A stretch of DNA of 64,000 bases from Hysterangium stoloniferum (taxonomy: Eukaryota; Basidiomycota; Agaricomycetes; Hysterangiales; Hysterangiaceae), in assembly GCA_015178975.1 (NCBI GenBank), contig WHVD01000071.1, positions 372,001 through 436,000 of the forward strand, written 5' to 3'. Of this stretch, positions 5,722 to 29,860 are shown piece after piece. The translations under genes were made by a program, and so were the position numbers. Position 1 is the first letter of the stretch. Each line of letters begins with the position of its first letter. Under the pieces are notes generated by a model. That model saw only the letters and a list, made by a program, of their open reading frames with translations. It was not told where the DNA came from and made no database searches.

Positions 5722-5793
5722 GCTCTGAACCTTCTCTCTGGGGTGACCTTATAAACCCAATCTGATGTGGGAATGTTACATTAGGTGACATTA
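5722..5793. repeat. Left arm of an inverted repeat, split by element 1
   Basis: GGTGACCTTATAAACCCA, GATGTGGGAATGTTACATTA and GGTGACATTA occur here, and the arm resumes at 13883 after the retroelement (GGTGACAGCACCCACAT). The reverse complement of the whole arm is at 14640-14765. It resembles a terminal inverted repeat of a DNA transposon whose left end later received element 1. Confidence 0.65.
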
Positions 5794-6612
5794 TGTTACG
5801 ACTGGACAATCCTGCCAGACTCCAGGCACTAATCTGTACACCCCCACACGCTACAAGCACCAATTGTCTGTTTATAGGATTTCCTGCCTGGACTCCGTTA
5901 CATCAAGACTAGTTACATTCGACCTCATTAAGACACATATCAGTCGCCAGACTTCCCCCAGACTCCGTCTCTGTCTATGTCCGTCTTCATCCCATGCATC
6001 AGTCATCAGACCCCACTTAGAATCCCGTCACCGCTCTAATCGAGCCCCGTTCCCATTTTAGTCAAATGACCTGTCACGATTTAGGACTCCGCTCCCGCTC
6101 CGTTTCCCGTTATGGGTTATGCTTGTCACGATTCGGACTCCGCTCTGTTCCATTCCATTCCTAACACCAATTTGGTGTTGACTATTCCCGTTTTATGTTT
6201 TGTTAGTTTTGTTTCATTATTACTGGATTTGGTATGTCATTCACTCCATGGTCTATATAAACTGGCAGATGTTGTACATACAATCCAGTCAGAAAATTAG
6301 CTTAGATTCCCCCCAGTAATCTAATAACATTTTCTGCTCTAAAACCATACTTAATTCACACCGCTCGCACTAGTCGGAGCCCACAGGCTCCAGCATATCT
6401 ATCTCTCTCAACTATCTCGACCCACGACCCACGAACCCCCGACTTACGACCTACAACCCACGAACCCCACCCGGACTCCCCGGGACTCCCGTCCGTCCGT
6501 TTGAAATTGGACAACAGAATCTAGCGAGGGCGCAGCCTATAAGCTGAAGCCAAGTCCTACCGGATATCCTGTGGGTTTCTCCAGAAACCCGGCCTGTGTG
6601 TGTATCCTAACA
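5794..6612 (+). repeat. 5' LTR of element 1
   Basis: Starts TGTTACGACTGG and ends TGTGTATCCTAACA, 819 bp, with a matching partner at 13063-13882. A TATA box (CTATATAA, about 6253-6260) lies 33 nt before AGTCAGAAAAT at 6287, the probable transcript start. The downstream leader includes AAGCTGAAGCCAAGTCC (6541-6557), which recurs in every LTR family of this window. Confidence 0.95.
6254..6287 (+). promoter_or_regulatory. LTR promoter: TATA box and inferred start site
   Basis: TATATAA at 6254-6260 is followed 33 nt later by the 11-mer AGTCAGAAAAT, which exactly complements the priming site at 6615-6625. In Tf1-type self-priming the complementary segment is the extreme 5' end of the RNA, which places the start at 6287. 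The start is inferred, not measured. Confidence 0.7.
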
Positions 6613-6614
6613 GT

Positions 6615-6625
6615 ATTTTCTGACT
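6615..6625 (+). other. Self-priming primer-binding site of element 1
   Basis: ATTTTCTGACT begins 2 nt after the LTR and is the reverse complement of AGTCAGAAAAT (6287-6297) inside the LTR. No tRNA-like TGG-start site was seen. This is the arrangement known for Tf1, where the RNA 5' end folds back to prime reverse transcription. Confidence 0.8.
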
Positions 6626-6648
6626 AATACTCGCAGACTGTTGTCATT

Positions 6649-7944
6649 ATGCCACCAAGAAGAAGTACACGCGCACAGTCATCAATACCTGGACCGTTGA
6701 CTCTTCATTCCCCATTAACTCTGTATACCAGTCAGACACTTGTGAACCAGTCGGAACCCATGGAAGAAGCCCGTATTGAAGAAATCCCGGAAAACCTGGA
6801 CGAATCCGAGCACGAGGACAATTCCGTGGCCCCTGACAAGGGCAAAGGTGTCGAAATCCCTCTCGAAAATCCTCCGCCTGTTCAACGACCGCACTTGGGG
6901 GATCCTACTTCTGAATTTTTAGCAGGTACCATAGATAAATTCATGACGCACCTGCTCCAAGAATGAAAGAAAAAGGAACAAGAACCTCCACAGTCAAAAG
7001 TCAATTCTCCGGAACCCTTCACAGGTTCCAACCCAAACAAACTCTCTACTTTCCTCATGCAATGTCACTTCAACTTCCGTGATCGTGCCGCTGCATTCTC
7101 CACGGACTCCCGAAAAGTCAACTATGCACTGTCATATTTGTTGGGATCTGCATTGAAATGGTTCGAACTGGCTTTTAGTGGGATTTCCGAGGAAGAGCCG
7201 CTCTGGCTTGAAAATTGGGAGGCTTTTGTTGAGGAGCTTGAAACCAACTTTGGCCCATATGACCCGATAGGAGAAGCCGAGAATAGCCTCACAAATCTTC
7301 GTATGAAGGACACGCAGCGCATCACGGACTATATCGTCCAATTCAATAATCTTGCAGCTCGTTGTCAGTGGGGCGATCCCGCTCTCCACCACCAGTTCTA
7401 CGCCGGTCTGCCATCCCGCCTTAAAGACGAAGTCTCGAAAGGAGAAGATGGCAAGCCAAAAACCCTGTCCCGTATGCCCCTCAAAGCTCAAAACACGGAT
7501 GCACATTATTGGGAATGTCACGTGGAAGTTGCCCACGAGACGTCCGTGGACAAAGTAAACAAGTCCAAGGACAATAAAAACAATAACAATAATTCGTCAA
7601 CCAGCAACCAGAACTCCACGCAATCCGACAAGAAGAACGATAAGAAGTCTTCAAACAACAACAACAATAAGGACAATAAGGACAACAACAAGGGTCAACA
7701 GTCCGGCAAACAAGCCGGAAAACCCGACCTCTCAGGCAAATTCAGACCCGATGGCAAATTGACTCCACAAGAAAGACAATGTCGTATGGACAACAACCTC
7801 TGTCTCTTGTGTGGGAAACCTGGTCATTGAGTCCCAGAATGTCCGCTGGCAAAAGCAAACTCTTCAAAGGGTCGATCAGCCAAAGCTGCCTCCACAGAAA
7901 CCCCGTCGAATGACAAACCGGCTGCCGATTCGAAAAAAGAGTAA
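6649..7944 (+). pseudogene. gag: gag of element 1, with in-frame TGA codons
   Basis: One frame of 431 codons runs from ATG 6649 to TAA 7942-7944 and is interrupted by TGA at 6964 and 7828. It shows a retrotransposon capsid-type core (PEPFTGSNPNKLSTFLMQC through KWFELAFSG and LTNLRMKDTQRITDYIVQFN), then an Asn/Lys-rich linker. A CCHC zinc knuckle (CLLCGKPGH, stop, VPEC) follows, whose missing residue is consistent with CGA to TGA. Gag packages the element RNA in particles. Near its end the bases GAAAAAA precede the terminal TAA by one codon and the protease frame is -1 relative to gag, suggesting programmed frameshifting in the ancestor. Confidence 0.88.
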
Positions 7945-7952
7945 GCAACCCC

Positions 7953-10900
7953 ATGGACTCCGCACGCGTTAGGGGTTGCATTGCCTGTCCGCACATTCAA
8001 GAGTTCACTCACCTCAACACATCCGCTCTTTCACATTCTGATTCATTTCTCGTTAAACTTATGTCTAATATGATTCTGAAATTCATTTTTTCAGCTCTTA
8101 TAGATTCCGGCTCGACTCATTGTTTTTTAGATACAAAATTCACACAAAAAATTTCTTTGTCAACTTATTCGATAAATCCCGTCGGTCTCCACCTCTTCAA
8201 TGGCACAAGTAATTCGGTTGTTACCCAAGCTTGTGATTTACCCATCAATTTCCTTTGTGGAACATCTCAATCGGTCACTGTCTATGTGACCCAGTTAGAC
8301 TCAAGTTGCTCGGTGGTCCTAGGACATAACTGGCTTACCCGCTACAATCTGTTGATTGACTGGATAGCTAACATTATAACATTCTGGACTCCCGCGGCGA
8401 CCGAGGAAACTGCGCCTGTCTCGGCCTCCATGGCACCCATGGCCTTCTGGCACCTGCAGTCTCGAGGACTCCTGTGATCCCTACGGCACCACTGGCTTCC
8501 CTGGAACCCACAGCACCTCCATCCATTTCTCTGATTAATGCTGCAGCTTTTATTAGGGCTTCAAAAATGGATGGGTCCCAGGCGTTCACTATCAACTTAA
8601 AAATTGATGAAGCAACTGGACGTTTTTCAACCCCGGTATCTGAATCTGAGCAAGCCACTGACCTAGAAGGCGTCCCAGAGAAATATCATGACTTCACGGA
8701 TGTTTTTAGCAAGTGGAAAGCTGACCGGCTTCCGCCTCACAGAGAATACGACTTAAAAATCGATCTTGAAGATGGCGCCCAGCCACCCCTAGGACATATT
8801 TACCTGCTTTCGTCCATGGAATTATCTGAAATCTGTGATTTCCTGGATGAACATTTGTCCATAGGTTTTATTCAACCCTCAAAGTCTCCTTTTGGAGCAC
8901 CTGTTCTGTTTGTCAGAAAGAAAGATGGATCCCTTCGACTATGTGTTGATTTTAGAGGACTCAATGCTGTCACCAAAAAGGACAAATATCCACTCCCACT
9001 CATATCTGACCTGCTTGATGTTCCGCGGAATGCCCAGATTTACACCAAAATAGATCTCAAGCATGCCTATCATTTGGTCCGGATTGCTGCAGGCGACGAA
9101 TGGAAAACCACTTTTAGAACCTGTTATGGGGCCTTCGAGTGGTTGGTCATCCCCTTTGGACTCACCAATGCTCTATGTGTTTTTCAGCGTTTTATCAACG
9201 ACATTTTCTCCGATATGCTCGATGTATGCGTCATTGTTTACTTGGACAACATTCTTATCTACTCCGAGAATCCCGTGGAACACGACAAACAAGTCCATGA
9301 AGTTCTCCGGAGGCTCAGACAACATGGTTTATTCGTGAATGGTAAAAAATGTACTTTTGACACGGACTCCATGGAATACCTAGGTTTCATGATGGGACCC
9401 GATGGACTCTGCATGGATGAAACTAAAGTACAAGTCATCAAAGATTGGCCCGAACCCTGAAAAGTTAAAGATATCCAATCCTTCCTCGGCTTTGCCAATT
9501 CTTACCGATGTTTTATCCGTGGATATTCCGACATCACGGTACCCCTTACCTGTCTTATGTGTAAGGGTACTCCGTGGAATTTTAATGATAAGTGTCAAAA
9601 AGCTTTCAATCTTTTAAAAAATTCTTTTTCTACAGCTCCTATTCTGTCGCATTGGAAACCGGACTTCCCGCTCATTGTTGAAATGGACACCTCCGACTAT
9701 GCACTTGGAGCCATTTTGTCTATCCAGGACTCTGACAGAGAAGTTCACCCCGTGGCTTTTCTGTCCCAGACTTTTACCGGAGCAGAGCTCAACTACAATG
9801 TTTATGATAAAGAACTTCTGGCAATCTTTTCAGCTTTCAAAGCGTGGTGACACTATTTGGAAGGTTCAGGAGCTCCTATTGACATTGTAACAGATCACAA
9901 AAACCTGGAATACTTTTCTACCACAAAACTTTTAACCCACCGGCAGGCCTGCTGGTCTGAATATCTCTCTGCCTTCAACATGATTATCCGCTTTCGACCT
10001 GGCCGTCTCAGCGGCAAACCCGACGCTTTAACTAGACGATGGGACATCTACCCTAAAGAGGGAAGCAACAACTATGCAATGGTAAATCCGCACAACCTGA
10101 AACCTATTTTCACGAATCAACAGCTTACCGCATCGGTCTGCACAACTTTCCTCGTCAATCCCATTGTCCATGGAATTATCATTATGGATATCGAGAAGTT
10201 ACATCAAGATATTCTATCAGCAATTCCGCTAGACCCAGTTACTAAAGCTCATCTGGACAATCCCGTGGACCCCGATCAACCTCGGTGGTCTCTTGAACAA
10301 CATGGTTTCATTAGACTTGATGATTGTATCTATGTACCGGACTCCGGCAGCCTCCACCTCAGGATCCTTCAATACAAACATGATCATCCACTCTCAGGAC
10401 ATTTTGGGTACAACAAAACTCTATCATTAATAATAAGAGAATATACTTGGCCCGGACTCCGTGGATTTGTTAAGCACTATTGTAAATCTTGCACTACTTG
10501 TCCCCACTCGAAATCTCAGCGACACAAGCCATACGGCCTTTTGAAACAACTCCCGGTACCGGAACACCCGTGGAATTCTATCTCTATGGATTTCATTGAA
10601 CACCTACCGGATTCCGAAGGCTTTTCTGCTATTCTAGTCGTTGTTGACAGATTCTCAAAACAAGGTATATTCATCCCTACTTATGATACAATTACGTCCG
10701 TGCAGTTAGTGGAACCTTTCATTATCCACATATTTTCCAAGCATGGAGTTCCGTCCCACGTGACTTCCGATAGAGGATCAGAGTTCGTGTCTCACTTCTT
10801 TAGATCCCTCGAAAAATCCTTGGACATGACACTACATTTCACATCCGGACATCATCCCGAAAGGTGACGGACAAACTGAACACGTCAACCAGACATTGGA

Positions 10901-11669
10901 ACAATACCTCTGTGTATATTGCAACTACCAACAGGACAATTGGAAGACCTTGTTACCACTTGCAGAGTTTGCTTACAACAATGCACCTTCAGCCACTACT
11001 GGCATTTCCCTGTTCTTTGCAAATAAAGGATATAATCCAAATATTACAGTACATTGAGAATGAAATCTCGCCTCTGCTCGCACTCAAGAGTTCACCACAG
11101 ACCTCCATGAGCTCCACGAGGAACTCCGGACTGCAATATTGTCCGCCCAAGAGCAATACCAACATTCAGCGGACAAACACCGGATCCCACCACCAAACTT
11201 CAAGATTGGCGACCGTGTTTATGTCAAAGCTCAATTCTTCCAGACTACCCGTCCATCAAAGAAGCTTGCTGAAAAATATTGAGGTCCGTTTGAAATTATC
11301 GCACAAGTAGGTTCAGTCTCTTGGACTCTACGGCTTCTGGATAGCATGCACGCGGTACACCCGGTATTTCATGTTTCTATGCTAGAACCTTGTACTGCTA
11401 ACACTATCCCGGATTGCATGCAATCTCCACCTCCTCCTGTCATCATTGACAGAGAATCCGAGTTTGAAATCTCACAGATTTTAGATTCAAAAATTGACAA
11501 GCATTGACGCACTTGTAAACTGCTTTACTTGGTCAAGTGGGCAGGTTACGAGGGCACCAATGAAGAGACCTCATGGATTTTGGCCATGGAACTCGGTAAT
11601 GCCATGGAAATTGTTACTGACTTTCATACAGCTTACCCGCTCAAACCTGGACCATTATCTTCTCTCTAA
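7953..11669 (+). pseudogene. pol: pol of element 1: protease, RT, RNase H, integrase, chromodomain
   Basis: The aspartic protease (ALIDSGSTHCFLD, then VVLGHNWLTRYNLLIDW) is in one frame to 8477. RT, RNase H and integrase lie in another frame, 8474-10867. RT has FGAPVLFVRKKDGSLRLCVD and an active site reading YLDN instead of YLDD. RNase H has EMDTSDYALGAIL. Integrase has the HHCC region (HPLSGHFGYNKTL, CKSCTTC) and a core with MDFIEHLP and TSDRGSEF. An extra A near 10860 shifts the frame. The remainder (DGQTEHVNQTLEQYL onward) ends in a chromodomain, YLVKWAGYEGTNEETSW, stop TAA 11667-11669. In-frame stops (9458, 9848 and several after 11050) are all TGA, several where family members have Arg. 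Reverse transcription and targeted integration would be its roles; it cannot work as is. Confidence 0.93.
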
Positions 11670-11866
11670 CTGCACTCCATGGACCCCGTGTTACGTTTGG
11701 ACTCATTTTCATTATTCCCTGTCGCCCTATGTCTCTCTTTGCTTTTACAGGTTCTGACATGTCTAGTCAAGTCTTTAAGCGGACTCTCCGTGGACTTTGG
11801 CTTTGACTCTCTTTTTTTATGTATTTTCACACTTGCTTTTATGTTCAAATTATCAAGTTCTATTCT

Positions 11867-12852
11867 TTATTCATCTATTTCTATGGGGCTGTGTTTTTTT
11901 CCCGCCGCCTCAGCAACCTCCTCAGGAAGCTCCACGACCTCCACGTCGACCCCGTCCTCATCCGACCCGGCATCCCCGGAACTCCCAACTTGCGGCTCCT
12001 CATATACATAGCTGCCATACTCCACCAGGAACTTCCAAAATTCCTCGCAGAGTCCGCACAGTTCCTTCACCACCACTATGTGGACCTTGTTGCTCTTCCA
12101 GAGCAACTCATTTTGGGCCTCGATCCCCTCGGTGATCCGTCCAAGGACTTCGGACAACCTGTCCAACCTGTCCAACCCGCTTACATATTGTGCCCCAGAC
12201 CCCGTGGCCTGCTCGTGAACAAGCGAGCACCTCGCCTTGAGGTGCGCGCATTGATAGCACCCCGGACCCTGGCCGGACTTTCGGTTGCATTCAGTGTTCC
12301 GGTGGTTACAACTGGAACACCGTGGCTCGTTCCACGTCGGAAGATGGACTGGTGCCACCTTCCTTGCCTTCTGTTGATATGGTCAGTTTCCACGGTTATC
12401 CCACGGCCATGAGGCTTACCTTTTGGGGGCTCTCTGGCTCCCCCTCGGACTCCGATTCCACCTCTGTCGCCTTGCGCTGAAAAATACAAGTCAGCAAATT
12501 TCGACAAGTTGAATATTGGGACTTACTTTCCTGCAACAATTGCGGCCCTGTCCACGGCCAACTGGGCTTTCTCCGCAGCCACCCGGGCATTCTCTGCGGC
12601 CACCCATGCAGCCTCCTCCACTTCACACTCCCTCTCCTTTGCGGCCTCTTCCTCCACAGCCAATGCTGCCTGGTACTCTTTGTCCAGGGCGTCCTCAGCC
12701 TCCCTCACCTCCCTCTCTGCTTCTTCACGAAGTCGGCGCTGCTCTTCTCGCCGTGCCAACAATTGGGCTGCACTCCAAGGCACCCGATACAGAGAGTCCG
12801 TGGAGGACCCCGCGGTTGGCATTGCTCTTCTAGGCATTGGTTTTGGTCCCAT
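11867..12852 (-). CDS. Opposite-strand accessory gene of element 1: coiled coil plus Zn2Cys6-like cluster
   Basis: Three exons are proposed. Exon 1, complement(12527..12852), starts MGPKPMPRRAMP and encodes an Arg/Glu/Ala-rich coiled coil (RREEQRRLREEAEREVREAE). Exon 2, complement(12420..12476), is RKATEVESESEGEPESPQK. Exon 3, complement(11867..12370), carries CSSCNHRNTEC, nine residues, then CYQCAHLKARC, i.e. two C-x2-C-x6-C half sites as in fungal Zn2Cys6 clusters. A leucine-rich coil and an acidic tail ending HSPIEIDE follow. Intron 2 is in phase. Intron 1 has a good donor (GTAAGT) and acceptor (TTTTTCAG) but leaves exon 1 one or two nt out of phase with exon 2, so either a one-base indel or another donor is involved. 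The gene converges on pol and has its own upstream TATA. Function unknown; nuclear DNA or RNA binding is a guess. Confidence 0.68.
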
Positions 12853-12960
12853 ATTTTCGAAGATGGGGGTAATAAAGAAGAAGAAATTTCTATTTTTTCA
12901 AATTTATATATAGGCTCGTCGCGTTTGAACCTTACCTTCCAGATCACATGACTCTTTGAC
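12853..12960 (-). promoter_or_regulatory. Promoter/leader of the opposite-strand gene
   Basis: On the minus strand CCTATATATAAATTTG (about 12899-12914) lies roughly 55 nt before ATG 12852, separated by a pyrimidine-rich leader with TTTCTTCTTCTTT. The same order and words occur upstream of the matching ATG in the relic at 48136-48245, so the block is conserved between diverged elements. Confidence 0.65.
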
Positions 12961-13049
12961 ACATACGTGTAACTGACATGACGTTTGACACATGCGTGTA
13001 GCCGACAAGAACCTTATCTAGGTCTAGAGCCTCTTTGGGACTTCGGCTT

Positions 13050-13062
13050 AAAGGGAGGATAC
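13050..13062 (+). other. Polypurine tract of element 1
   Basis: AAAGGGAGGATAC abuts the 3' LTR. The identical tract abuts the 3' LTR of element 2 (minus strand, just right of 21475), and a near match (GAAGGAAGGGTAC) precedes the LTR at 48315. It would prime plus-strand DNA synthesis. Confidence 0.8.
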
Positions 13063-13882
13063 TGTTACAACCGGACAATCCCACCGGACTCCGGGCACTA
13101 ACCCGTACACCCCCACGCGCTACAAGCACCAATCGTCTGTTTATAGGATTTCCCACCCGGACTCCATGACTTCAAGACTAGTTAGGTTCGACCTCATTAA
13201 GACACATATCAGTCGCCGGACTTCCCCCGGACTCCGTCTCTGTCTATGTCCATCTTTATCCCACGCACCAGTCACCGGACCCCGCTCAGAATCCAGTCAC
13301 CGCTCTAATCGAGCCCCATTCCCGTTTTAGTCAAATGACCTGTCACGATTTAGGACTCTGCTCCCACTCCGTTTCCTGTTATGGGTTATGCTTTGTCACG
13401 ATTCGGACTCCACTCCATTCCGTTCTGTTCCTAACACCAATTTGGTGTTTACTATTCCCATTTTATGTTTTGTTAGTTTCGTTTTGTTATTACTGGATTT
13501 GGTATGTCATTCACTCCATGGTCTATATAAACTGGTAGATGTTGTACATACAATCCAGTCAGAAAATTAGCTTAGATTCCCCCCAGTAATCTAATAACAT
13601 TTTCCACTCTAAAACCTTACTTAATTCACACTGCTCGCACTAGTCGGAGCCCATGGGCTCCGGCGCATCTATCTCTCTCAACTATCTCGACCCACGACCC
13701 ACGAACCCCTGACTTACGACCTACAACCCACGAACCCCGCCCAGACTCCCCGGGACTCCCGTCCATCTGTTTGAAATTGGACAACACAATCTAGTGAGGG
13801 TGCAGCCTATAAGCTGAAGCCAAGTCCTACGGGATATCCCGGGGGTTTCTCCGGAAACCCGGCCTGTGTGTGTATCCTAACA
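13063..13882 (+). repeat. 3' LTR of element 1
   Basis: Starts TGTTACAACCGG, ends TATCCTAACA, 820 bp, followed by the duplicated CATTA. It carries the same TATA box, 5'-end 11-mer and AAGCTGAAGCCAAGTCC (13811-13827) as the 5' LTR. Confidence 0.95.
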
Positions 13883-13935
13883 CATTAGGTGACAGCACCC
13901 ACATGCTTTGTAATACATATTTGCATCAGTTGTGT

Positions 13936-17344: not shown

Positions 17345-18556
17345 GAATTTGTGCAACGTCTGAGCTAGACACAGAGTGAGGTAAGACCAAAGTTCTCATT
17401 GTAGAATTCATTGAGGTACATAAAGGTCTAACTTGGAATTATTGGGATTATGGTGCGTCAATCAGAGTTGTTATTACGAAATTGCATGTATAATCCCAGT
17501 CAGGTAATACTTACTTACCGCTAGCCTTATTATTACCTGTCTGACTGAGTGGAATATTTCTCCCCAAGGTTACACCTCGAGGCATGGATATGATTATTTG
17601 ATGCTACGATGATGAGGTAGGTCAATAATTGTGACCCACCCGCAGTTTGAACTATTGTAGGCGGAGTCCTTCCGATATTTACAGAGTCCTCATGCCCCAC
17701 TCTGCTTACACACACCCTATGCCTGTCATCTCACCTGCCCCTTCGTTGATGCCCACTCCACTTTGACCTTTACAAAGGTGGCTGTAATGGTCCCACTCCT
17801 ATGCCACATGATGGTCAGTCATTGAAAATCTCAGTTTGTCGCCCCAATCAATGCTTCATTCTCTGATTTTTCGCGATTGTTAATCAGGGAAATAATGAAG
17901 TCTGTAGGTTCATACGAACTTCTTAGCTGATCGATGGCTATTTTAATCACCAGATGGGTATAGGATATGGTACTTGCCAAGGTAATGCAACATAATGTAA
18001 TGGATATGGGATTAATTATCAATCAGTTCAGCAGCATAGCAACAAAAATATTTCATCAGATTACCGTTGGGATCACTCTCGACTCCAATGAAACTTAAGT
18101 ATCCTGGGGAAAGACCGAAAATGACAGCAACTCCCTTGAAGACAGTGGCAATGGTCGCACCTCGTCTCGGATTGGCTTAAACATTCCTGACCACATCAGG
18201 AAAGCGGGAAGATCAGTAAGTATGTCATCTATATTGTCTAGAGCCATCTAGGAGAGCTAGCTAGCTCAGCTAGACTCGGTTAAACACACTACTTTCGTGA
18301 AATCCCTAGTTACTAGTCAGCATAAAGCTTACTATAGATCTAGGAAGTGTAGGGAGGCTAGGGAGTCTACATAATAGGTGTAGTACATACTGTGAAATTG
18401 TCTCAAACTTTGCGGGTTTATTCAATATTTATTCACCCTCCAAAGTAATTGAAAAAAGGAAAATAATAATATCCTCCAGTTAGTTTGTTCCAAGCATGTT
18501 GGCGTTACGTGATTTGAGATCATGTCAAGTGATGGCGCAAGGCGTTCGCCAGGTCC
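17345..18556 (-). pseudogene. Repeated gene-like unit X, copy 1
   Basis: Minus-strand reading gives DLPAFLMWSGMFKPIRDE, then FKGVAVIFGLSPGYLSF and GVESDPNGNLMKYFCCYAAE. ISITLCCITLASTISYTHLV and SYEPTDFIISLINN follow. A region ending GRNIP/GEKYSTQSD follows downstream. The unit is duplicated in direct orientation at 28720-29860 and in part at 62950-63450. Hydrophobic stretches suggest a membrane or structural protein, but I do not recognise the family. Frame changes near 18150 suggest decay or unrecognised introns. Confidence 0.4.
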
Positions 18557-20270: not shown

Positions 20271-20275
20271 GAGAG

Positions 20276-21475
20276 TGTCACGAATCGATTATTCTCCGAT
20301 AAAGTTGAATAATATTCTATTAACCGAACTCGAAAGCCTTGTTTGACAAAGTATATATTCGCCCTGTCAATGAAGTAAGAGGCTATTACCAGTCGCGAGA
20401 ACTCATGGAAGTATTTGTCGAAGAAGTTACGACAAAGTAGATTACTAATATCACTAATATTGTTACGACTGTGTCGCAACCCTTCGCACACCAACGGTCC
20501 CCGATGGTATATCATAGTTATACGTCTTCAACAAGACAAGATCTCGGAAGCCGTCGGTCCTCCGACGCTGACGTATGCTCTCCGGTCAATCAAACCCGAC
20601 TACGCCTTTCTGTCTGGTTATGTTTTGATACGTCCCTTTCATTATGTTGACCCGTTTCCACTCTATGTTTCACACATGTCTATCTATATTTGTAGTCCTC
20701 GAACTATTTCCTTTTATCATAATTTCCATTGTTGGTTATCATCGGCCTCTGAACTAATCATAAACTTCCCATTCCTAGTCAAGCTTAATGCTAATACCGT
20801 TTTCCGCCCTTCTCCCCATTAGTATTTTCTAGATGCCTGTTACTTGTATATGAACCCGCTGTAGTTGTAGTTACTAGGCAATCAGAATATCGACTTAGAT
20901 ACCCCTCTAATTTCCGACTCCATTATCTATTCACAACCACCACATTCCGACTCCCTCCGATTTACGATTCAACCTACATTTACGACCACAACCTCTAATC
21001 TCCGACACTCTCAGTCTCCGACTGTCTCAGTCTCCGACTCTCCAACCCAACCCTCGACTTATCCTTCGGTTTCCGATCGGTAGTTTACCGAGAGGTTTAC
21101 TCGACAGGACTAGTTTCTGCCTGCCTGAAATTTAAGGACACCCGACGGTAACTTGCGAGGGCGCAGCACATAAGCTGAAGCCAAGTCCTTCCGTTCGGTC
21201 CCCATCGGTCTGCCGACATCTGTCAGTTTCTGCTCTTAACAAATATACAGATATTTCGACTGACTTCCCTCGCTCCTTTCGTAGCCCTTTTATGCTTTTC
21301 GTGGTATCATTATAACTATGTTATGAACTAATTATGAAATCATATATGACGTCGAAAGAGATTCGATGGTGTCAATTAATATTCAGTTTGTCGAGTTGAA
21401 TTCGATAGGTCGAAGAGTTGTCGAAAGTTACCTTTGAATGTTTGTGACAATATGTGACATGTGACGGTTGTGACA
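20276..21475 (-). repeat. 3' LTR of element 2, split by a nested solo LTR
   Basis: Matches 27272-27700 except for a 786-bp insert at 20461-21246 (solo LTR plus duplicated AATAT) and a ~15-bp deletion near 21350. Confidence 0.92.
20461..21241 (+). mobile_element. Nested solo LTR
   Basis: 781 bp, starts TGTTACGACTG, ends GCTCTTAACA, flanked by AATAT at 20456-20460 and 21242-21246. It contains AAGCTGAAGCCAAGTCC (about 21172-21188) and GCGAGGGCGCAGC, like the element 1 LTR, but is otherwise diverged. It is younger than element 2 and its internal part was lost by LTR-LTR recombination. Confidence 0.92.
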
Positions 21476-21555
21476 GTATCCTCCCTTTGTGACCGAGCCC
21501 ACGAGGTCGGAGTTTGAAAATTTTTTTCATCGTCTATTTTCGTGTTTTTCAAGCA

Positions 21556-22392
21556 ATGTCTGATATAGAAGTCGATCAATTCAAATCAGGATCTGATTTT
21601 TTGGGTTTTGAGGATAGAGATGTGGTTGTTAATGTGGTTGGTAAGTCGTTTCTGGGATTTCTTTAAAATTAGTTCATTAGTTATTTTTTTAGAAGAAATT
21701 CCCAAAAAATGGATTGAAGATTGCAAAGAACCGTACAATAAGGCGACTCGTAAAGGAATTGGCATGCAATGGGAATTTGAGGCAAAATCAGACAATTCGT
21801 AATTTTTCGATTTTGTCGAATTCTTGTCGAATTTTGCTAATTCATTTTTTCTAGTTGCACAATGTGTTTTAATATGAATTTCATGTGCAAGAAAAGTAAC
21901 ACGTCGTCGAATTGCGATCAGTGCAATCGATTGCATCGGGCTTGTTACTGGACCGTAAATAGGCCAGCCGGAAAACCGCGTCGTAATCGAAAAAAGAGTC
22001 GTAACATGATCGAAGAATCGGAGGACGAAAATGAAAATGGTAGTCCAGAAATTCGAAAGCTTGGGCAAAGGAAAAATAGTCATCACAAGGTCATGTCAAG
22101 AATGTCGAATTTTTCGAGACGGTCGAGAAGGTCAGAACATTGGTTGGATAAAGACTTAGAAAAAGAAGTAAAATCGATTGGCGAAAGGATGTCGAAATTA
22201 GAAGAGACCATGGAAGATTTAATTGGTGAGGTGAAAGCGTTCAGAAAGGATTTTTCGGTTTTGTCAAAGAGACTGGTCGAAAGTGGCGATTTTAGTAAAG
22301 AGACTGACATTAGTGTGAATAGTGGAAGATTTAGGAGAGCGTGGTTTGATAAGATGGAGGAATTGAGAGAGGAAGGAATTGAAGATTTGTAG
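21556..22392 (+). CDS. Opposite-strand accessory gene of element 2: Zn2Cys6-like cluster plus coiled coil, intact
   Basis: Three exons: 21556-21640, 21693-21798 and 21855-22392. Both introns are GT-AG (GTAAGT...TTTTAG; GTAATT...TTCTAG) and phases fit, giving 242 codons with no stop. Exon 1 starts MSDIEVDQFKSGSDF; exon 2 has IPKKWIEDCKEPYNKATRKG. The junction to exon 3 creates SCTMCFNMNFMC, eight residues, CDQCNRLHRAC, i.e. two C-x2-C-x6-C half sites. A basic/acidic linker (RRNRKKSRNMIEESEDENEN) and a coiled coil (LEKEVKSIGERMSKLEETME) follow. The position (between pol end and 3' LTR, converging on pol), exon number and placement of the cysteine cluster at the start of exon 3 match the gene in element 1. 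Sequence identity between the two is low. Role unknown; a regulator or nucleic-acid-binding helper of the element is inferred only from the fold and location. Confidence 0.8.
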
Positions 22393-22506
22393 TTACTTTT
22401 AAATTTTGATATAATTGATGTTTTTGTGTTTTGATATGTTTTTTTCGATTTTGTTGAATAGATGTCAAAATAAGGGTTGAAAGATAGTTGAATGAGATTT
22501 TTAATG

Positions 22507-25500
22507 TCATGGAAGATTTGGATATTTTTGATGAAATTCTTCGATAAGGTCGAAAGCATGTTCGAGATCTTGAGAGCCTAACCACGAAGTTTCTTCGTCT
22601 GTTCCTTCATAACCTAACCAAGCAACTAAATATCGTAACGAATCTTTATATCTTTTATCAAATTTTGAATCCAAAATTTCTCGAATTTCATATTTGGGTT
22701 CTTCTTCAACATAAATGGGTGGAGGAGGAGGTTGGTTTCGATTTGGGAAAGTATTGGGATAAAATGGTTCTAACATTGAGATGTGAAAGATGGGATGAAT
22801 TCCTTTGAGATGATTGGGGAGTTTTAATGTATATGAATGAGATCCTGGTCGAGCAATGATTTCGAATGGGCCTAATAATTTGTCTGATAGTTTTTTTGAT
22901 GGTTGGGTCGTTCGAATGAAGTCGGATTGTACGAAGACTTGAGAATGGATCGGAAAGTCGAAAGACTCTTTTCGATGTATGTCAAAATATTTTTGATAAC
23001 GTATTTGCACTTTCTGGATATTTGATTTGAGATGTTTATGTAGAGCTTCGAGATCTGTCGTATAATCGCGAGCTAGATCTTTTTCAGGGTGAATTTCTAA
23101 CAATGGATGATAACCTTTATTAGCAAAAAATGGCCTTTCACCAGTTGTTTTGGAAGGTGCATTGTTGTAAGCGAATTCGGCTAAAGGAAGTAATTCGGCT
23201 CAATTGTCTTGTTGATAATTGGAATATATTCATAAATATTGTTCGAGGGTTTGATTGACTTGTTCGGTTTGTCCATCACCTTCAGGATGATAACCAGAAG
23301 TGAAATGTAATTTCATGTCGAGTGCTGTTCCGAGAGATCGAAAGAAATGCGACATGAATTCGGATCCTCGATCAGAAGTTACATGACTGGGGACTCCATG
23401 TTTTGAAAAGACATGTAATACGAAAAGTCGAGCGAGTTCGGGAGCATTGATCGTAGTATAAGTTGGAATGAATATTGCTTGTTTCGAAAGTCAATCGACG
23501 ATCACAAGTATTGAGTCGTAACCATTCGAGGTCGGTAATTGTTTGATAAAGTCCATCAAAATCGAATGCCATGGTCGAAGAGGGATCGGAAGTTGCTTAA
23601 GTAATCCAACGGGTCGATGTCGTGGAGTTTTCGATTTTGTACATGTTACGCATGATCGAATAAAACTTTGAATATCTTGTCGGAGTCGTGGCCAAAAGAA
23701 ATCTCGATATATTGTTCAATATGTTTTCGTTTGACCGAAATGGCCTGCAGTAATATGATCGTGTCGTGATTGAAGAACTCGAAGTCGGAGAGTTTGATAA
23801 TCAGGAACGCAAATTCTGTTTCGGAAACATAAAAAGTCTTGTTCGTTCTTTTGCCAATCTTCTTCGGTACCGTCGGAAATCTGTTGAATCTTGTTGAGAG
23901 TAAATTGATCTTCTTTTTGAGCTTTGAATATATCTTTCAATAGTTGATCCGTATCCATAATAAGAGTAGCTTTTCTCGCTATTGGAAGATAATATGTTGC
24001 ACGTAAAGAAGCTTGAATTTGCTCATTCGTAAATACCGGTCGAAGATTAGTTGGATTCTTTTTCGAGTAGTCGGGTTCATTCGGATAAACATTATTTCTT
24101 CTGGAAAGAACATCTGTTCTCAAATTTAGTTTTCCTGGTCGAAATCGAATAACCAAATTAAAGGTCGATAAATATTCTGCCCATCAAGCTTGTCATCAAG
24201 ACAAAATTCGAGTTGTCACAAAATATTCGAGATTCTTGTGATCCGTTAAAACTTCAATTGGTTCTTTTGTTCCTTCGAAATAATGTCGCCAAATTTTGAA
24301 AGATTCGAATATTGCCAATAATTCTTTATTGTAAGTGTCGTAGTTAATTTCGGAGGTCAAAAGAGTTCTTGAATGATAAGCAACTGGATGAATCTCGTTA
24401 TTGGAAGTCTGCATAGAAAATATTGAAGCTATAGCATGATCAGAAGCGTCAGTTTCGAGTATAGGTTTATAGTCTGGATTCCAATGAATTAAAATTGGAG
24501 CTGTAGTAAATTCTTTTTTCAAATAGTTAAATGCATGTCGACATTTTTCGTTGAAATGCCATTGAACCTTTTTTCGAGTAAGTCGAGTCAACGGTAAAAC
24601 GATTTCAGAATAACTTGGAATAAATCTTCGATAGAAATTCACGAATCCTAAAAATGATTGAATGTCGTGGACTTTTTGTGGTTCGGGCCAGTCTTGAATA
24701 ACTTTGATTTTTTCTTCGTCCATATATACGCCTTGAGGAGAAATAACATATCCTAGAAACTCGATGCTGGTTTTGTGAAATTTGCATTTTTCGGGTTTTG
24801 GAAATAATCGATTTTGTCGAAGCCGTCAAAGAACTTCTCGTACTTGTCGTAAATATTCTTCGAGATTATCGGAAAATATTAGTATGTCGTCGAGATAGAT
24901 GATTACCCAAATATCAAGTAAATCTGAAAATATTTCATTCATTAATTGTTGAAAGGTTGCCAGAGCGTTGCACAGTCCAAAAGGCATAACCAAATATTCA
25001 AAAGATCCATATTGAGTCCGAAAGGCTGTTTTCCACTCATCTCCTGGAGCAATCCTAACTAAATTATAAGCGCCTCGGAGATCAATTTTCGTAAAATATT
25101 TCGCCCTTCGAAGTCGATCCAAAAGATCAGGAATTAAAGGAAGTAGATATCGATTTTTCTGTGTAATTTTATTTAGTCCTCGATAGTCGACGCAAAGTCG
25201 TAGATTTCCGTCTTTCTTCTTAACGAACAAAATCGGTGCGCCGGCGGGAGATTGCAACGATCAAATAAACTTCTTCAAAAGATTCTCTTGGAGATATTCT
25301 CGTAGCACTTGAAGTTCTGTCTCGGATAACGAATAGATCGGACCCATAGGTGGAATAGTTCCTTCTTCTAATGGGATAGCATGATCATAACTTCGGTGTT
25401 GAGGTAAAGCTTCAGCTTCTTTTTTGTCGAAAAATCCGAGAAGTCGCAATATTCGGTTGGAACGTTCGGTATGTCGAATGAAGTCGAAGTCGTAGTTTTT

Positions 25501-25985
25501 GCACCAGAGGCCTTACAAGTCTTGAAAGATTCATCGCGAATGAAGACTACAAAGGTTTGAGAGTCTTTTGCTTTTGCAGCTCATAAGAAAGTCTTCTGAT
25601 TGACTATGTTGATATTCGGATTAACAGTCTTGGATTTCGATTCTTCACAGATTTTCTCAGATGTTGATGAATGACTCACCGAGGTCGAAACATGCTTCTC
25701 TTCCGATAACGTTTCGATTGACGGTTGAATCGGATTCGGATTTGTCGAAGGTGTTGAAGTAGGTTCGAACGATATACGGCCAGATCGCCAGTCAATCGCA
25801 GGATTGTATTGCTTCAGCCAGTTGAGTCCTAATACCACTTGACAAGACGAGTCGAGATTGGTTAGAAAGAATTGTAATTCCTGAATTTGCCTGGATGGAA
25901 AATAAACTTGTAGCTCGTAATATTACACAGGAATCTTTTTCGGCGTGATCGAGTCTTCTTCGATATTCTTCACACACCTGAAGAG
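22507..25985 (-). pseudogene. pol: pol of element 2: protease remnant, RT, RNase H, integrase, chromodomain
   Basis: The protease keeps only its C-terminal half (SSCQVVLGLNWLKQYNPAID); the DSG-containing half is deleted. RT has [20 protein letters not shown] and an intact YLDD. RNase H has ETDASDHAIASI. Integrase has HHCC residues near 23700 and the core with TSDRGSEFMSHFF and GDGQTEQVNQTLEQYL. A chromodomain (YLVAWLGYEGTDEETSW) closes the protein, stop 22507-22509. From about 25450 down the frame is single but broken by numerous TGA codons at places where Arg (CGA) or Trp is expected (for instance VD-LSKQ and YQQDN-AELL). A one-base change near 25440 separates protease and RT frames. Dead copy. 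Confidence 0.93.
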
Positions 25986-25994
25986 TATCCCTTT

Positions 25995-27247
25995 TCAATT
26001 TTCCGATTTAACATTCGATGCTTGATTCGACTGGTCAGATTGAGTTGTCGAATCTTGGACTTCAACGATTCGTCCTTTTGCAATTTGACGAGTTTTTCTT
26101 TTCAGACAATCCCTCGCCGAATGACCTTTCTCTCCACATAATATACATAACCCTTCCTTAAATCTTCTGTCTCGTTCAGCAGGAAGTAATCGTCCATCGG
26201 GTCCTAAAATTGTCAAAGATGGTTTCGCTTGAGTCGAAGGCCTAAATGTTCTTGAAGTTGAAGTTGTCGGTTTAGAAGTCGAAGGTGTTTGTGATGTCGA
26301 AGGATATGTCGTAGGCGTCGTCGATTGTCTTCTTTCAAATCTTCGCGGAGTCGAACTTGATTCTGTTTCACGTTGTTGTTCATTCTCTCGCATCCAATAG
26401 TAAGAATCAAGTCGCAGGGCTGCCGTTCGCAGGTCAGCAAAACATTCGGGCTGAACTTGAAGCTTCACTATTTCGTCCTTAATTCGATTCGGAAGTCCCT
26501 TATAGAATCGTCGTCGTAAAGCGAATTCATCATATCAAGTTTGAGCAGCGAGACTCGTAAATTGAATTGAATACTTCGCAACGTGATGATGAGCTTTCAT
26601 TCGAAGATTATTGAGTTTTTCTTCGGCTTCTCCTTCTGCATCGATTTCTCCAAACTGAGCATATAATTCATCTAGAAAATCAAGATAATCCACAAGGAAA
26701 GATGGTGGAGGAATTGGGGGATTTAATAGAAAAGGTTGCCACCACTCTTGAGCCATTTTCCGGAAATACGAAGTTACCATTGTAATTTTCGATTGATCGG
26801 ATTCCAACGATTTTGGTCGAGATCGAAAGACCATTTCGCATTGAGCGATAAAATTCTTCAACATCGAAGGTTCTTCTCCAGTAAACTCTTTGGGCTTATT
26901 CACTGTGATTTCGTGCTCCTTCGAAGTTATCTGGTCCTTCAATACTTTTCCGAGTGCATCTCCGAAATGTCAAAACATTGTTTCATCCTCAGACGTAACA
27001 GGTTCAGGTCATGGAGATTCAGGCAAAGTGTTAAAGGGAATTCAGATTCTTGAATTGGCAAGATCAGTTCTTCTCGAACTTCTTCGGGTTCTCGGATTGA
27101 AGACATCGCAGTTCTTCTAGTTTTGGTTAAAGGAGAAACTGGAATTCACGATGGCCGAATAACTCTTGGTGAAGGAGTGGGAGCCATGGATTGAAGTGCT
27201 GTGGAACTTGATGCTTTGGTAGTCTCGGATCGCGTCCTGGGCTTCAT
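25995..27247 (-). pseudogene. gag: gag of element 2
   Basis: Capsid-type core (KPKEFTGEEPSMLKNFIAQC, EWWQPFLL, LNNLRMKAHHHVAKYSIQF), a Ser/Thr-rich linker and an intact CCHC knuckle (CILCGEKGHSARDC), ending SNQASNVKSEN. One TGA interrupts it near 26535. A frame change near 26945 separates it from the likely start ATG at 27245-27247 (MKPRTRSETTKASSSTALQS). Confidence 0.88.
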
Positions 27248-27258
27248 CAACAGTTGAT

Positions 27259-27269
27259 AGTCGAAATAT
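27259..27269 (-). other. Self-priming primer-binding site of element 2
   Basis: On the minus strand ATATTTCGACT starts 2 nt after the 5' LTR and is the exact complement of AGTCGAAATAT (27461-27471, minus strand). The latter lies about 30 nt downstream of a TATA-like CATAAAAG (27497-27504). Spacing and 11-nt length equal those of element 1. Confidence 0.8.
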
Positions 27270-27271
27270 AC

Positions 27272-27700
27272 TGTCACGAATCGATTATTCTTCGATAAAG
27301 TTGAATAATATTCTATTAACCGAACTCAAAAGTCTCATTTGACAAAGTATATATTCGCCCTGTCGATGGAGTAAGAGGCTATTACCAGTTGCGAGAACTC
27401 ACGGAAGTATTTGTCGAAGAAGTTACGACAAAGTAGATTACTAATATCACTAATATACAGATATTTCGACTGACTTCCCTTGCTCCTTTCGTAGCCCTTT
27501 TATGCTTTTCGTGGTATCATTATGACTATGTTATGAACTAATTATGAAATCATATATGACGTCTAAATGAGACATGTCGAAAGAGATTCGATGGTGTCGA
27601 TTAATGTTCGGTTTGTCGAGTTGAATTCAATAGGTCGAAGAGTTGTCGAAAGTTACCTTTGAATGTTTGTGACAATATGTAACATGTGATGGTTGTGACA
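27272..27700 (-). repeat. 5' LTR of element 2
   Basis: 429 bp, partner of the left LTR; followed on the right by the duplicated GAGAG. Confidence 0.94.
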
Positions 27701-28719
27701 GAGAGTGGAGATGGATGAGACAAGTCGGGAGGGAGGGAGAAAAAGAGAGATGGGATGGGGGCTGGTGTGGTAGGGCATGTCGACCACCGCGTCCTCGATC
27801 ATGGACATGGTGGTCGTTTAAAGTGGTACAAATCAAGTCGAGGGAACAATCGATGTCCTTTACAGAGAAGTCATGGTCCTCTGTTTGACACTGCGTACTA
27901 CATGGAGAATGAAGATGTCTCGGGTGGTGGTTGGTTGTGGGTGGGCTTGAACCATTACATAAGCAATGGTTATGATCTGAACCGCTGGACTGAGGGAGGG
28001 GCGGGTGACGATGAAATCCATACTAGATTAATTTTTTGCATAGAATAGAATATATATATATATATATTGTTATAATTAGAAATCTTTTGAAGCCTCCAAT
28101 TCATTGAAAAACTATTTGGATGTGTGCTGTGTAAATCTCACTAAGTGCTCACTTACCCCCTATCTTCCCTGCTCTTACCACTGTAAATCTAGCCAAGCTG
28201 AAAACATGTAGCTATATAAAAATTGAGGAAATATGCCGTGGTCTCCTGGAAGTGACTCGTGTAATTTATATTGGTAATTTTGTGTGTGGGCAGCCTATAC
28301 ATCTCATAAATGCTATAACAAAACTCATCGCCCCCCTGGTTTATAAGGCAAAAAAAATGCAGCAGATATCCCCTCGTAAATGGTCTGCAGTAAAATAAAT
28401 GATAGAATTCATAAATTCATGGAAGACAGACAAATAATCGTGAGAGTCTTCCTACAACAAAGTTACAAAGTACCCTATGTACCTCACTTGAAAAAAAAAA
28501 TTTTTTTTTTCTTGGTGGTTGCGGAATCGAATAATATTAATATATATATACATATTTAAATATAAATCGCCCTGCAACTTTCTTTATTGGTGGTGCTAAC
28601 CTTCCCCCATATGATGGCAGGATCGCAGAGCCTGGTCCCAAGGCGTCGCTACCGTGTGGTGGTTGTGCCGGCGCAATACCACAATTTACATGCCGCTTAA
28701 GGCGTAAATCTGGTCAGGT
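27701..28719. other. Low-complexity flank; no clear gene
   Basis: 27701-27800 continues the GA-rich minisatellite. 27755-28048 has an open frame without motifs. (AT)n at about 28053-28074 and an A/T-run palindrome at about 28490-28515 are simple repeats. Confidence 0.4.
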
Positions 28720-29860
28720 ACAGTGACTTACCGCTAGCCTATTACCGGTAGACTGAGTGGAATATTTATCCCCAAGGTCATGCTCTCGATGCATGGATCT
28801 GATTATTTGATACTACGATAACAAGGTAGGTCAATAATTGTGACCCACCCATACTTTGAACTATTGTAGGCGGAGTCCTTCCAATATGAACAGAGCCCTC
28901 ATGCCCAGATGCGCTTACACGCGCCCTTTGTCTGTCATCTCATTTTCCCCTTCATTGCTGCCCACTCCACTTTGAGCTTCACGAAGGTCACCGTAATGGT
29001 CCCACTCCTATCCCACATGATGCATGATGGCCATTTATGGCAAGTCTCAGCGTGGACCCCCAATCAATCCTTGATTTTCTCATTTTTCACGATTGTTAAT
29101 CAAGGAAATAATGACGTCTGTAGGTTCATACGAACTTCTTAGCTGATCAATGGCTACTGTCATCACCAAATGGGTACACTATACAGTGCTTGCAAAGGTA
29201 ACGCATGATAATGTAATGAATCAGGGGTTAATCATCAGTGAAGCAGCATAGCAATAAAAATATTTCATCAGATGACCGTTGGGATCACTCTCAACTCCAA
29301 TGAAACTTAAGTATCCTGGGGGAAGACCGAAAATGGCAGCAACTCCCTTGAAGACAGTGGGAATGGTCACACCTCGTCTCGGATTGGTTTAAACATTCCT
29401 GACCACATCAGGAAAGTGGCAAGATCAGTAAGTATGCCGTCTATATTGTCTGGAGCCATCTAGGAGAGCTAGCTCGGCTAGACACACTACTTTCGCGAGA
29501 TCCCTAGTTACTAGTCGGTATAAAACTTAATATAGATCAAGGAAGTGTAGGGAGGCTAGGGAGTCTACATAATAGGTGTAGAAATTCACAAATCCCTGAT
29601 GCATCTCATCTCTGTTAGGCTCAAAAATTGTCCAGGAATAATTGTTGCCTCTGAGATGTACATATGTAATCCTACAATATATATAGCTATTAGTCAAAAA
29701 CCAAGAATCTCAAAAGCATTCTGAGGTATCATCAATGCTGTTTTTGTAATGGACTCAGCACTGAAGAAGTGCTCTCAAATTGCCTCAAACTTTGCAGAGT
29801 ATGTCATTGTTACGTGATTTGAGATCGTGTCGAGTAATGGAGCAAGATGTTCACCAGGTC
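28720..29860 (-). pseudogene. Repeated gene-like unit X, copy 2
   Basis: Direct-orientation duplicate of 17530-18556. Minus-strand blocks DLATFLMWSGMFKPIRDE, TIPTVFKGVAAIFGLPPGYL and GVESDPNGHLMKYFYCYAAS are clear. The two coding blocks are one frame apart at about 29365, at the same place as in copy 1, so an intron or shared lesion lies there. Unknown family. Confidence 0.42.

What the first reader, a model, noticed from the sequence alone, without database searches (positions are those of the whole stretch)
21556..22392. Two chromoviruses carry a spliced, opposite-strand Zn2Cys6-like/coiled-coil gene in the same place
Seen: in element 2 (21556-22392) and element 1 (complement 11867-12852) a three-exon gene converges on pol just inside the 3' LTR. 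In both, exon 3 starts with two C-x2-C-x6-C half sites (spacers of 8 and 9) and then a coiled coil. The two proteins are otherwise very different, and so are the host elements, so the layout is old. Known: Zn2Cys6 clusters are fungal DNA-binding modules; standard Ty3/gypsy elements do not carry such a gene. Inference: this may be an accessory system of the element (transcription control, targeting or counter-silencing).
Basis: partly seen in the sequence, partly recalled or inferred. Interest (0 to 1): 0.86.

Follow-up and report, generated by a model that had tools for sequence, protein, structure and literature searches.

The report
Backward zinc-cluster gene in fungal retrotransposons
Several very abundant jumping elements in a truffle-like fungus carry, on the strand opposite to their replication genes, a small intron-bearing gene for a probable DNA-binding protein that selection has preserved, and some of these elements are strewn with paired DNA sites of the kind such proteins bind.

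Summary
Both Ty3/gypsy elements in this window (Hysterangium stoloniferum) have two LTRs and 5-bp target duplications. Each carries a three-exon gene on the opposite strand between pol and the 3' LTR, with a C-x2-C-x6-C-x8/9-C-x2-C-x6-C motif found nowhere else in the window. The gene is selected: exon dN/dS is 0.15-0.51 in 30 copies per family, and 63 of 67 element-2-type pol ends carry it. Two further abundant families (FC, FD; reverse transcriptase 80-81% identical to element 1) carry homologues of the element 1 gene with the same intron phases; the element 2 gene is at best a distant relative. One other chromovirus type lacks it. The protein diverges much faster than pol. Function is inferred: the element 1 family and FD hold an excess of inverted CGG pairs at fixed spacing, in coding DNA too, with protein, codon use and dinucleotides held fixed; FC has CGG tandem arrays; element 2 shows little of this. 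Most likely it is a Zn2Cys6-type regulator binding its own element. Binding and expression are untested, and Pfam Zn_clus is not reached. Antisense genes at this site are known (Botrytis brtn, plant Grande, Retand): a new variant of a known kind.

The parts
21556..21640 (+). Element 2 antisense gene, exon 1
   Evidence: ATG, GTAAGT donor; recurs in copies; dN/dS 0.51
21693..21798 (+). Element 2 antisense gene, exon 2
   Evidence: dN/dS 0.24
21855..22392 (+). Element 2 antisense gene, exon 3: cysteine cluster, basic stretch, long helix, stop
   Evidence: 538 nt in 30 of 30 copies; dN/dS 0.146; helix predicted at pLDDT about 83-91 over most of residues 86-142 of the exon 3 protein
21856..21945 (+). 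Cluster C-x2-C-x6-C-x8-C-x2-C-x6-C
   Evidence: all six Cys in 28 of 30 copies
12527..12852 (-). Element 1 antisense gene, exon 1 (charged, coiled-coil-like); one base out of frame in this copy
   Evidence: dN/dS 0.365
12420..12476 (-). Element 1 antisense gene, exon 2
   Evidence: 57 nt in 29 of 30 copies; dN/dS 0.149
11867..12370 (-). Element 1 antisense gene, exon 3
   Evidence: dN/dS 0.216, 0.25 in four copies found through pol
12227..12319 (-). Cluster C-x2-C-x6-C-x9-C-x2-C-x6-C
   Evidence: all six Cys in 29 of 30 copies
5794..6612 (+). Element 1 5' LTR; target duplication CATTA at 5789-5793 and 13883-13887
13063..13882 (+). Element 1 3' LTR, 91.7% identical to the 5' LTR; three CGG-N3-CCG sites
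6649..11669 (+). Element 1 gag-pol region, interrupted by stops
   Evidence: gag, RT, RNase H and integrase domains; open pieces only
20276..21475 (-). Element 2 3' LTR; target duplication GAGAG at 20271-20275 and 27701-27705
27272..27700 (-). Element 2 5' LTR, lacking about 0.77 kb that the 3' LTR has
22507..27247 (-). Element 2 gag-pol region, interrupted by stops; ends in SH3_Tf2-1 and chromodomain

Best explanation
It is an accessory gene of the elements. SHOWN by sequence and statistics: a three-exon gene antisense to gag-pol, starting 80-210 bp from the 3' LTR and converging on pol; under purifying selection; carried by four high-copy chromovirus families, three of them with homologous genes and the same intron phases; encoding a cysteine cluster with Zn2Cys6 spacing. 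INFERRED: it is transcribed from an antisense promoter in or beside the 3' LTR; its introns persist because they lie backwards in the genomic RNA and so are not spliced out of it; the protein folds a binuclear zinc cluster, dimerises through its helices, enters the nucleus and binds CGG-containing sites in its own family's DNA; binding raises transcription of the element or keeps silencing off it. Fast divergence of the protein beside a slow pol fits each family recognising its own DNA.
For: Selection, ubiquity, homology of the element 1 family, FC and FD genes, near-invariant cysteines, single-copy gene-deleted copies. Inverted CGG pairs at fixed spacing in the element 1 family and FD, also under shuffles that keep protein, codon counts and dinucleotides: N5 12 vs 2.9, N3 10 vs 3.4 (element 1 family), N3 11 vs 2.4 (FD), 0 of 500 each; CGG-N3-CCG on the LTR side of 4 of 5 element 1 family copies and CGG-N4-CGG arrays in 3 of 4 FC copies; the top trimer pair of an open scan is an inverted CGG pair in both the element 1 family and FD.
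Against: Pfam Zn_clus not reached. FC and the tested part of F2 show no inverted CGG excess in coding DNA; three F2 LTR sides show none. In the open scan, pairs of no evident meaning reach z 6.2 (F2), 5.7 (FC) and 5.3 (F3) against 5.9 and 6.5. Some element 1 family and FD sites look shared by descent, so they are not independent. No RNA, binding, zinc or structure evidence; single-sequence models are poor.
Confidence: 0.55

Rival explanations
1. The protein acts on the element's DNA or RNA at another step: nuclear entry of the pre-integration complex, or choice of insertion site, not transcription or silencing.
For: Nuclear localisation of Grande GENE23 and the suggestion of such roles are reported in PMC7264820. 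The gene is present at nearly all element-2-type pol ends.
Against: Integrase here already has a chromodomain, a known targeting module (recalled; domain found). CGG pairs dispersed through coding DNA are not expected.
Confidence: 0.2
2. Self-limiting regulator in the manner of HTLV-1 HBZ: an antisense, 3'-LTR-driven, DNA-binding coiled-coil protein that damps sense transcription and limits copy number.
For: Same position, orientation and splicing; HBZ starts in the 3' LTR and antagonises viral transactivation (search listing with start of abstracts).
Against: Copy numbers are very high (first-look candidates 188, 1296 and 976). A cost-only repressor would be lost by deletion, yet the two deletion copies found are each single.
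Confidence: 0.12
3. Counter-defence protein that binds host silencing or defence proteins through its helices; the cysteine cluster is structural and DNA is not the target.
For: Fast divergence outside the cluster, with no pair of families above 5% in hhalign beyond it; Pfam Zn_clus not reached.
Against: Does not explain the spaced inverted CGG pairs in the element 1 family and FD.
Confidence: 0.1
4. Only the antisense RNA matters, or the frame is incidental.
For: Antisense RNAs without coding capacity are known for some retroelements (PMC7264820).
Against: Low dN/dS in one frame of each exon; exon lengths kept while introns vary; near-invariant cysteines.
Confidence: 0.03

Closest known systems
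brtn, antisense gene of Boty-like gypsy elements of Botrytis cinerea (Zhao et al. 2011; title in reference lists only; citing passages in PMC7264820, PMC8365987, PMC4227169)
   Same: Fungal chromodomain-bearing gypsy element with an extra antisense gene; the review places it between pol and the 3' LTR
   Different: Sequence, domains and splicing of brtn could not be compared here; Botrytis is an ascomycete
[quoted passage not shown]
   Same: Position, orientation, presence in most copies, suspected nuclear or DNA-binding role
   Different: Retand is a non-chromovirus lineage with a TRP28 domain; no zinc cluster is mentioned in the passages seen, and introns gave no hit in the Retand paper
Fungal Zn2Cys6 (Gal4-type, PF00172) regulators
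   Same: Cysteine spacing followed by a helical region; inverted or direct CGG pairs as target grammar (grammar recalled)
   Different: Pfam Zn_clus not reached (best 8.8 bits against a cut-off of 21, FC protein); short proteins
VANC anti-silencing proteins of Arabidopsis VANDAL transposons (PMC5735166, passages)
   Same: Element-encoded, fast evolving; family-specific short motifs, often tandem, inside the element
   Different: VANDALs are DNA transposons (recalled); VANC21 sites are in non-coding regions, here the CGG pairs are also in coding DNA; no demethylation data here
HTLV-1 HBZ
   Same: Antisense regulator made from a transcript starting in the 3' LTR, nuclear, dimerising helix (listing, passage)
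   Different: HBZ is a bZIP protein; no sequence relation was tested

Membership tests
Antisense accessory genes of LTR elements (aORF-3R) | Frame antisense to gag-pol, between pol and the 3' LTR | tested here: met
Antisense accessory genes of LTR elements (aORF-3R) | Present in most copies of the family and conserved like other element proteins | tested here: met
   63 of 67 pol ends; dN/dS
Antisense accessory genes of LTR elements (aORF-3R) | Transcribed antisense | not testable with these tools
   No RNA data
Fungal Zn2Cys6 proteins (PF00172) | Six cysteines at C-x2-C-x6-C-x(5-12)-C-x2-C-x(6-8)-C (pattern recalled) | tested here: met
   Spacers 8, 9, 10 and 10 in the four families
Fungal Zn2Cys6 proteins (PF00172) | Reaches the curated Pfam score | tested here: not met
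   no match on the window's contig. Not filed as a member
Fungal Zn2Cys6 proteins (PF00172) | Binds zinc and CGG triplets | not testable with these tools
   CGG pairs are only indirect
VANC-type anti-silencing systems (works like) | Family-specific motifs accumulated inside the element | tested here: inconclusive
   Clear in the element 1 family and FD, arrays in FC, weak in F2
VANC-type anti-silencing systems (works like) | Protein removes DNA methylation from its own family | not testable with these tools
   CpG density is high in gene-bearing and low in gene-less chromoviruses, confounded with ancestry
HBZ-like antisense regulators (works like) | Antisense transcript starting in the 3' LTR | not testable with these tools
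   Gene starts 80 and 210 bp from the LTR
HBZ-like antisense regulators (works like) | bZIP domain | tested here: not met
   No bZIP family among Pfam matches
Chromoviruses (host elements) | Chromodomain at the end of pol | tested here: met
   Element 2; a copy of the element 1 family

The most novel reading that the evidence does not exclude
A self-marking, self-recognising system in LTR retrotransposons: each chromovirus family encodes backwards a fast-evolving zinc-cluster protein that binds spaced CGG pairs laid down throughout its own DNA, coding sequence included, and so keeps silencing and CpG methylation off its own family. It would be a fungal, retrotransposon counterpart of VANC in which the coding sequence itself has been shaped into a binding array.
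Probability: 0.22. Interest if true: 0.92.

Novelty: new variant of a known kind. Interest (0 to 1): 0.74.

Why it matters
The reviews seen here call the function of antisense genes in LTR elements unknown (PMC7264820, PMC11963269). This case gives a cheap, concrete test: a small protein with a recognisable cysteine motif, four families with diverged proteins, and candidate target sites inside the elements that differ by family. If binding is shown, it would tie antisense accessory genes to sequence-specific self-recognition and could help explain the high copy number of these elements. Codon choice in pol shaped by a DNA-binding site would be unusual in itself. The backward placement also shows how an element that copies itself through RNA can keep spliceosomal introns.

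Tried and rejected
Chance frame: rejected. Gene inserted in single copies only: rejected. Canonical Zn_clus by profile: not met. Solved structures with part of the FD exon 3: nothing meaningful, best E 0.49. Protein search in 5.8 billion sequences: element 2 protein none at E 0.01 among 158 candidates; element 1 family only two H. stoloniferum proteins. The tool needs shared 5-residue words, so distant fungal relatives may be missed; FC and FD were not searched there (cap reached). Viral contigs: no relative of the element 1 RT segment or of the element 1 family antisense protein. Single-sequence AlphaFold: mean pLDDT 66 and 45, too poor, no fold search run. Simple k-mer enrichment as motif evidence: rejected as indecisive, since under the strict shuffle F3 gives similar z (4.7 against 4.3-5.8 for the best k-mers of the others). 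One search did not turn minus-strand loci; redone. The rows 'FC LTRside' and 'FC L074' used the wrong end of the locus; redone. The script ended in an error after the third FD copy.

Papers, what was seen: PMC7264820 parts 1 and 2 of 3; PMC11963269, PMC8365987, PMC4227169, PMC5735166, PMC7550596 matching passages; PMC10398659 and the HBZ papers search listing with start of abstract; Zhao et al. 2011 only its title in reference lists. Searches for a report of this gene in Agaricomycete elements; none seen among the rows listed, in a library that lacks most subscription journals.

Full report
WHERE. The window is G000:C524:372001-436000 of a 111-Mb, 554-contig assembly. Two proteins found by search come from Hysterangium stoloniferum, one on a contig of 1,976,920 bases, the length of contig C334 here, so the genome is taken to be that species, an Agaricomycete of subclass Phallomycetidae. 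A paper names it among ectomycorrhizal Phallomycetidae (passages).

THE TWO ELEMENTS. Element 1 lies at 5794-13882 on +, LTRs 91.7% identical, target duplication CATTA. Element 2 lies at 20276-27700 on -, target duplication GAGAG; its 5' LTR lacks about 0.77 kb that the 3' LTR has. Both have AAAGGGAGGATAC at the 3' LTR edge, a likely polypurine tract. Pfam finds gag, RT, RNase H and integrase in element 1 pieces and RNase H, SH3_Tf2-1 and Chromo in element 2 pieces; the element 2 zinc knuckle is below its cut-off. A copy of the element 1 family has a chromodomain. Both gag-pol regions are interrupted by stops.

THE GENE. Element 2: exons 21556-21640, 21693-21798, 21855-22392, 242 aa, intron phases 1 and 2. 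Element 1: exons 12852-12527, 12476-12420, 12370-11867 on -, phases 0 and 0 in copies with an open frame; the window copy is one base out in exon 1. The six-cysteine motif is at these two places only in the window, and in none of 30 shuffles. In 30 copies per family: element 2 family exon 3 is 538 nt in 30 of 30, exon 1 85 nt in 28, exon 2 106 nt in 26; element 1 family exon 2 is 57 nt in 29, exon 3 504 or 503 nt in 30; introns and intergenic DNA vary more. The intron 2 donor of the element 2 family is GT changed to AT in at least 7 of 30 copies, probably CpG decay.

SELECTION. Pairwise Nei-Gojobori, 30 copies each: element 2 family exon 3 0.146, exon 2 0.24, exon 1 0.51; element 1 family exon 3 0.216, exon 2 0.149, exon 1 0.365; the other sense frames of exon 3 0.85-1.28. 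One antisense frame, sharing third positions with the gene, shows 0.22 and 0.31, higher than the gene in each family, and no copy keeps it open. These copies were the 30 best by protein similarity, which favours low values. Four element 1 family copies found through pol give 0.25 at pS 0.39; four FD copies found through pol give 0.44 (exon 3) and 0.23 (exon 1), with little divergence. Left out there because exon 3 was cut, deleted or broken: L065, L067, L075, L078, and L085. Exon 3 has no internal stop in 14 of 30 element 2 family copies and 7 of 30 element 1 family copies; the latter number is too low because some copies end one codon earlier. Internal stops sit at arginine sites in 22 of 23 cases (element 2 family) and 12 of 22 (element 1 family, where 8 are at the shifted end), as CGA-to-TGA decay would give. 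All six cysteines survive in 28 of 30 and 29 of 30 copies.

UBIQUITY. 63 of 67 pol ends of the element 2 type have exon 3 on the other strand, mostly 117-122 bp away. Of 33 pol frames of 1000 aa or more among the 150 scored SH3 hits, 27 have a listed exon 3 at 478-491 bp, 24 of these without stop. Of the six others: two carry it with exon 3 open (C36, C75), one has it in broken frames at a contig edge (C32), one has lost the cluster by deletion (C2), one lies at a contig end (C10, not testable) and one is the F3 type without it (C441). First-look candidates: 188 (element 2 family), 1296 (element 1 family), 976 (FC), of which 150 each were scored.

FOUR FAMILIES. FC was met through pol, FD through pol similarity to element 2. 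RT identity to element 1: FC 80%, FD 81%, element 2 60%, F3 46%. FC and FD genes have three exons with phase 0/0 introns, a similar exon 2 (RKA...SPK) and clusters with spacer 10. The FC exon 1 start is uncertain, and one of four FD copies did not match the donor pattern used. hhalign on the cluster region: element 1 family-FC 97.3%, FC-FD 96.7%, element 1 family-FD 94.3%; element 2 family with the element 1 family 29.8% (36% full length), with FC and FD below 7%. Beyond the cluster no pair exceeds 5%. So the element 1 family, FC and FD genes share descent; the element 2 gene may be a far relative or a replacement. F3 (pol frame 1298 aa, LTR ends 96.9% identical over 708 bp) and two fragments with 93% similar pol ends (L062, L063, called F4 in scripts) show no six-cysteine motif downstream of pol.

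DELETIONS. Two copies with long pol frames have lost the cluster and all or part of exon 2 (L075, element 1 family; L085, FD). A search with each junction finds it whole only in that copy: 1 of 40 scored matches each, from 484 and 269 candidates. They have not multiplied, as expected if the gene matters; they may also simply be young.

CANDIDATE TARGETS. Inverted CGG pairs peak at set spacings: element 1 family young copies (L090 and L054, 7.0 kb, about 0.9 kb of pol counted in both) N3 23 and N5 23 against a mean of 5.9 per spacing; window copy 11 and 10 against 2.6; FD N3 17 and N2 10 against 2.9; host 41.8 kb N3 6 and N5 4 against 4.7; F3 N3 0. In coding DNA, against shuffles that keep protein, codon counts and dinucleotides: element 1 family (L090) N5 12 against 2.9 and N3 10 against 3.4; FD (L088) N3 11 against 2.4; 0 of 500 each. 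FC (3,294 nt), F2 (1,392 nt only) and F3 show nothing comparable, over 3 arrangements and 16 spacings. In an open scan of all trimer pairs with gaps 0-14 the top pair is CGG-N5-CCG in the element 1 family (z 5.9) and CGG-N3-CCG in FD (z 6.5); unrelated pairs reach 6.2 (F2), 5.7 (FC) and 5.3 (F3), so the identity of the pair counts, not z alone. LTR side: CGG-N3-CCG 3-6 per copy in 4 of 5 element 1 family copies (not L034); CGG-N4-CGG arrays in 3 of 4 FC copies (not L069); none in 3 F2 copies or in the F3 LTR; the window F2 LTR has 3 CGG-N3-CCG against 0.16. The FC array in L071 is a 7-bp TCCGACT unit, 22.7 copies. F2 is rich in TCGA, 23-36 per kb on both strands against 4-6 in host DNA, but its dinucleotides account for this. 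CpG per kb: FD 69.5, element 1 family young 67.7, F2 52.2, FC 52.1, host 36.7, F4 19.1, F3 11.2; the decayed window element 1 has CpG o/e 0.79, like host 0.78. Gene-bearing and gene-less types are different clades, so CpG content and gene are confounded.

MECHANISM. Shown: gene, selection, ubiquity, homology of three families, spaced CGG pairs in two. Inferred: antisense promoter at the 3' LTR, zinc, dimer, nuclear DNA binding, effect on transcription or silencing. VANC proteins of Arabidopsis work through family-specific motifs (passages) and are the closest working analogue; HBZ is the closest layout analogue (listing). Neither is claimed as family.

NOVELTY. Antisense genes at this site are known in plants and in Botrytis Boty, with function unknown. 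I saw no report of a spliced, zinc-cluster-like one, or of spaced CGG sites in such elements. Hence a new variant of a known kind.

Noticed in passing
27272-27700 against 20276-21475: The two LTRs of element 2 differ by about 0.77 kb; LTRs are alike at insertion, so one changed later.
   Followed up: partly
17576-18555 and 28785-29860: A direct duplication of host DNA at about 11.2 kb spacing, 81-94% identical in pieces, on either side of element 2.
   Followed up: no
L071:2855-3022 and other FC copies: A 7/21-bp TCCGACT array on the LTR side of FC copies, of very different length between copies.
   Followed up: partly
P0002 and P0003 (H. stoloniferum proteins): Two annotated hypothetical proteins contain pieces of the element 1 family antisense protein; P0002 keeps only the second half of the cluster, P0003 lacks it. 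They may be mispredicted or decayed copies.
   Followed up: no
Genome-wide: Many element 1 family copies lie within a few kb of contig starts, by assembly breaks at repeats or a chromosome-end preference.
   Followed up: no
L080 and L061 against L088, L089, L082: Chromovirus types of one genome differ about sixfold in CpG density and in preferred CpG context (TCGA, CCGA or CCGC).
   Followed up: partly
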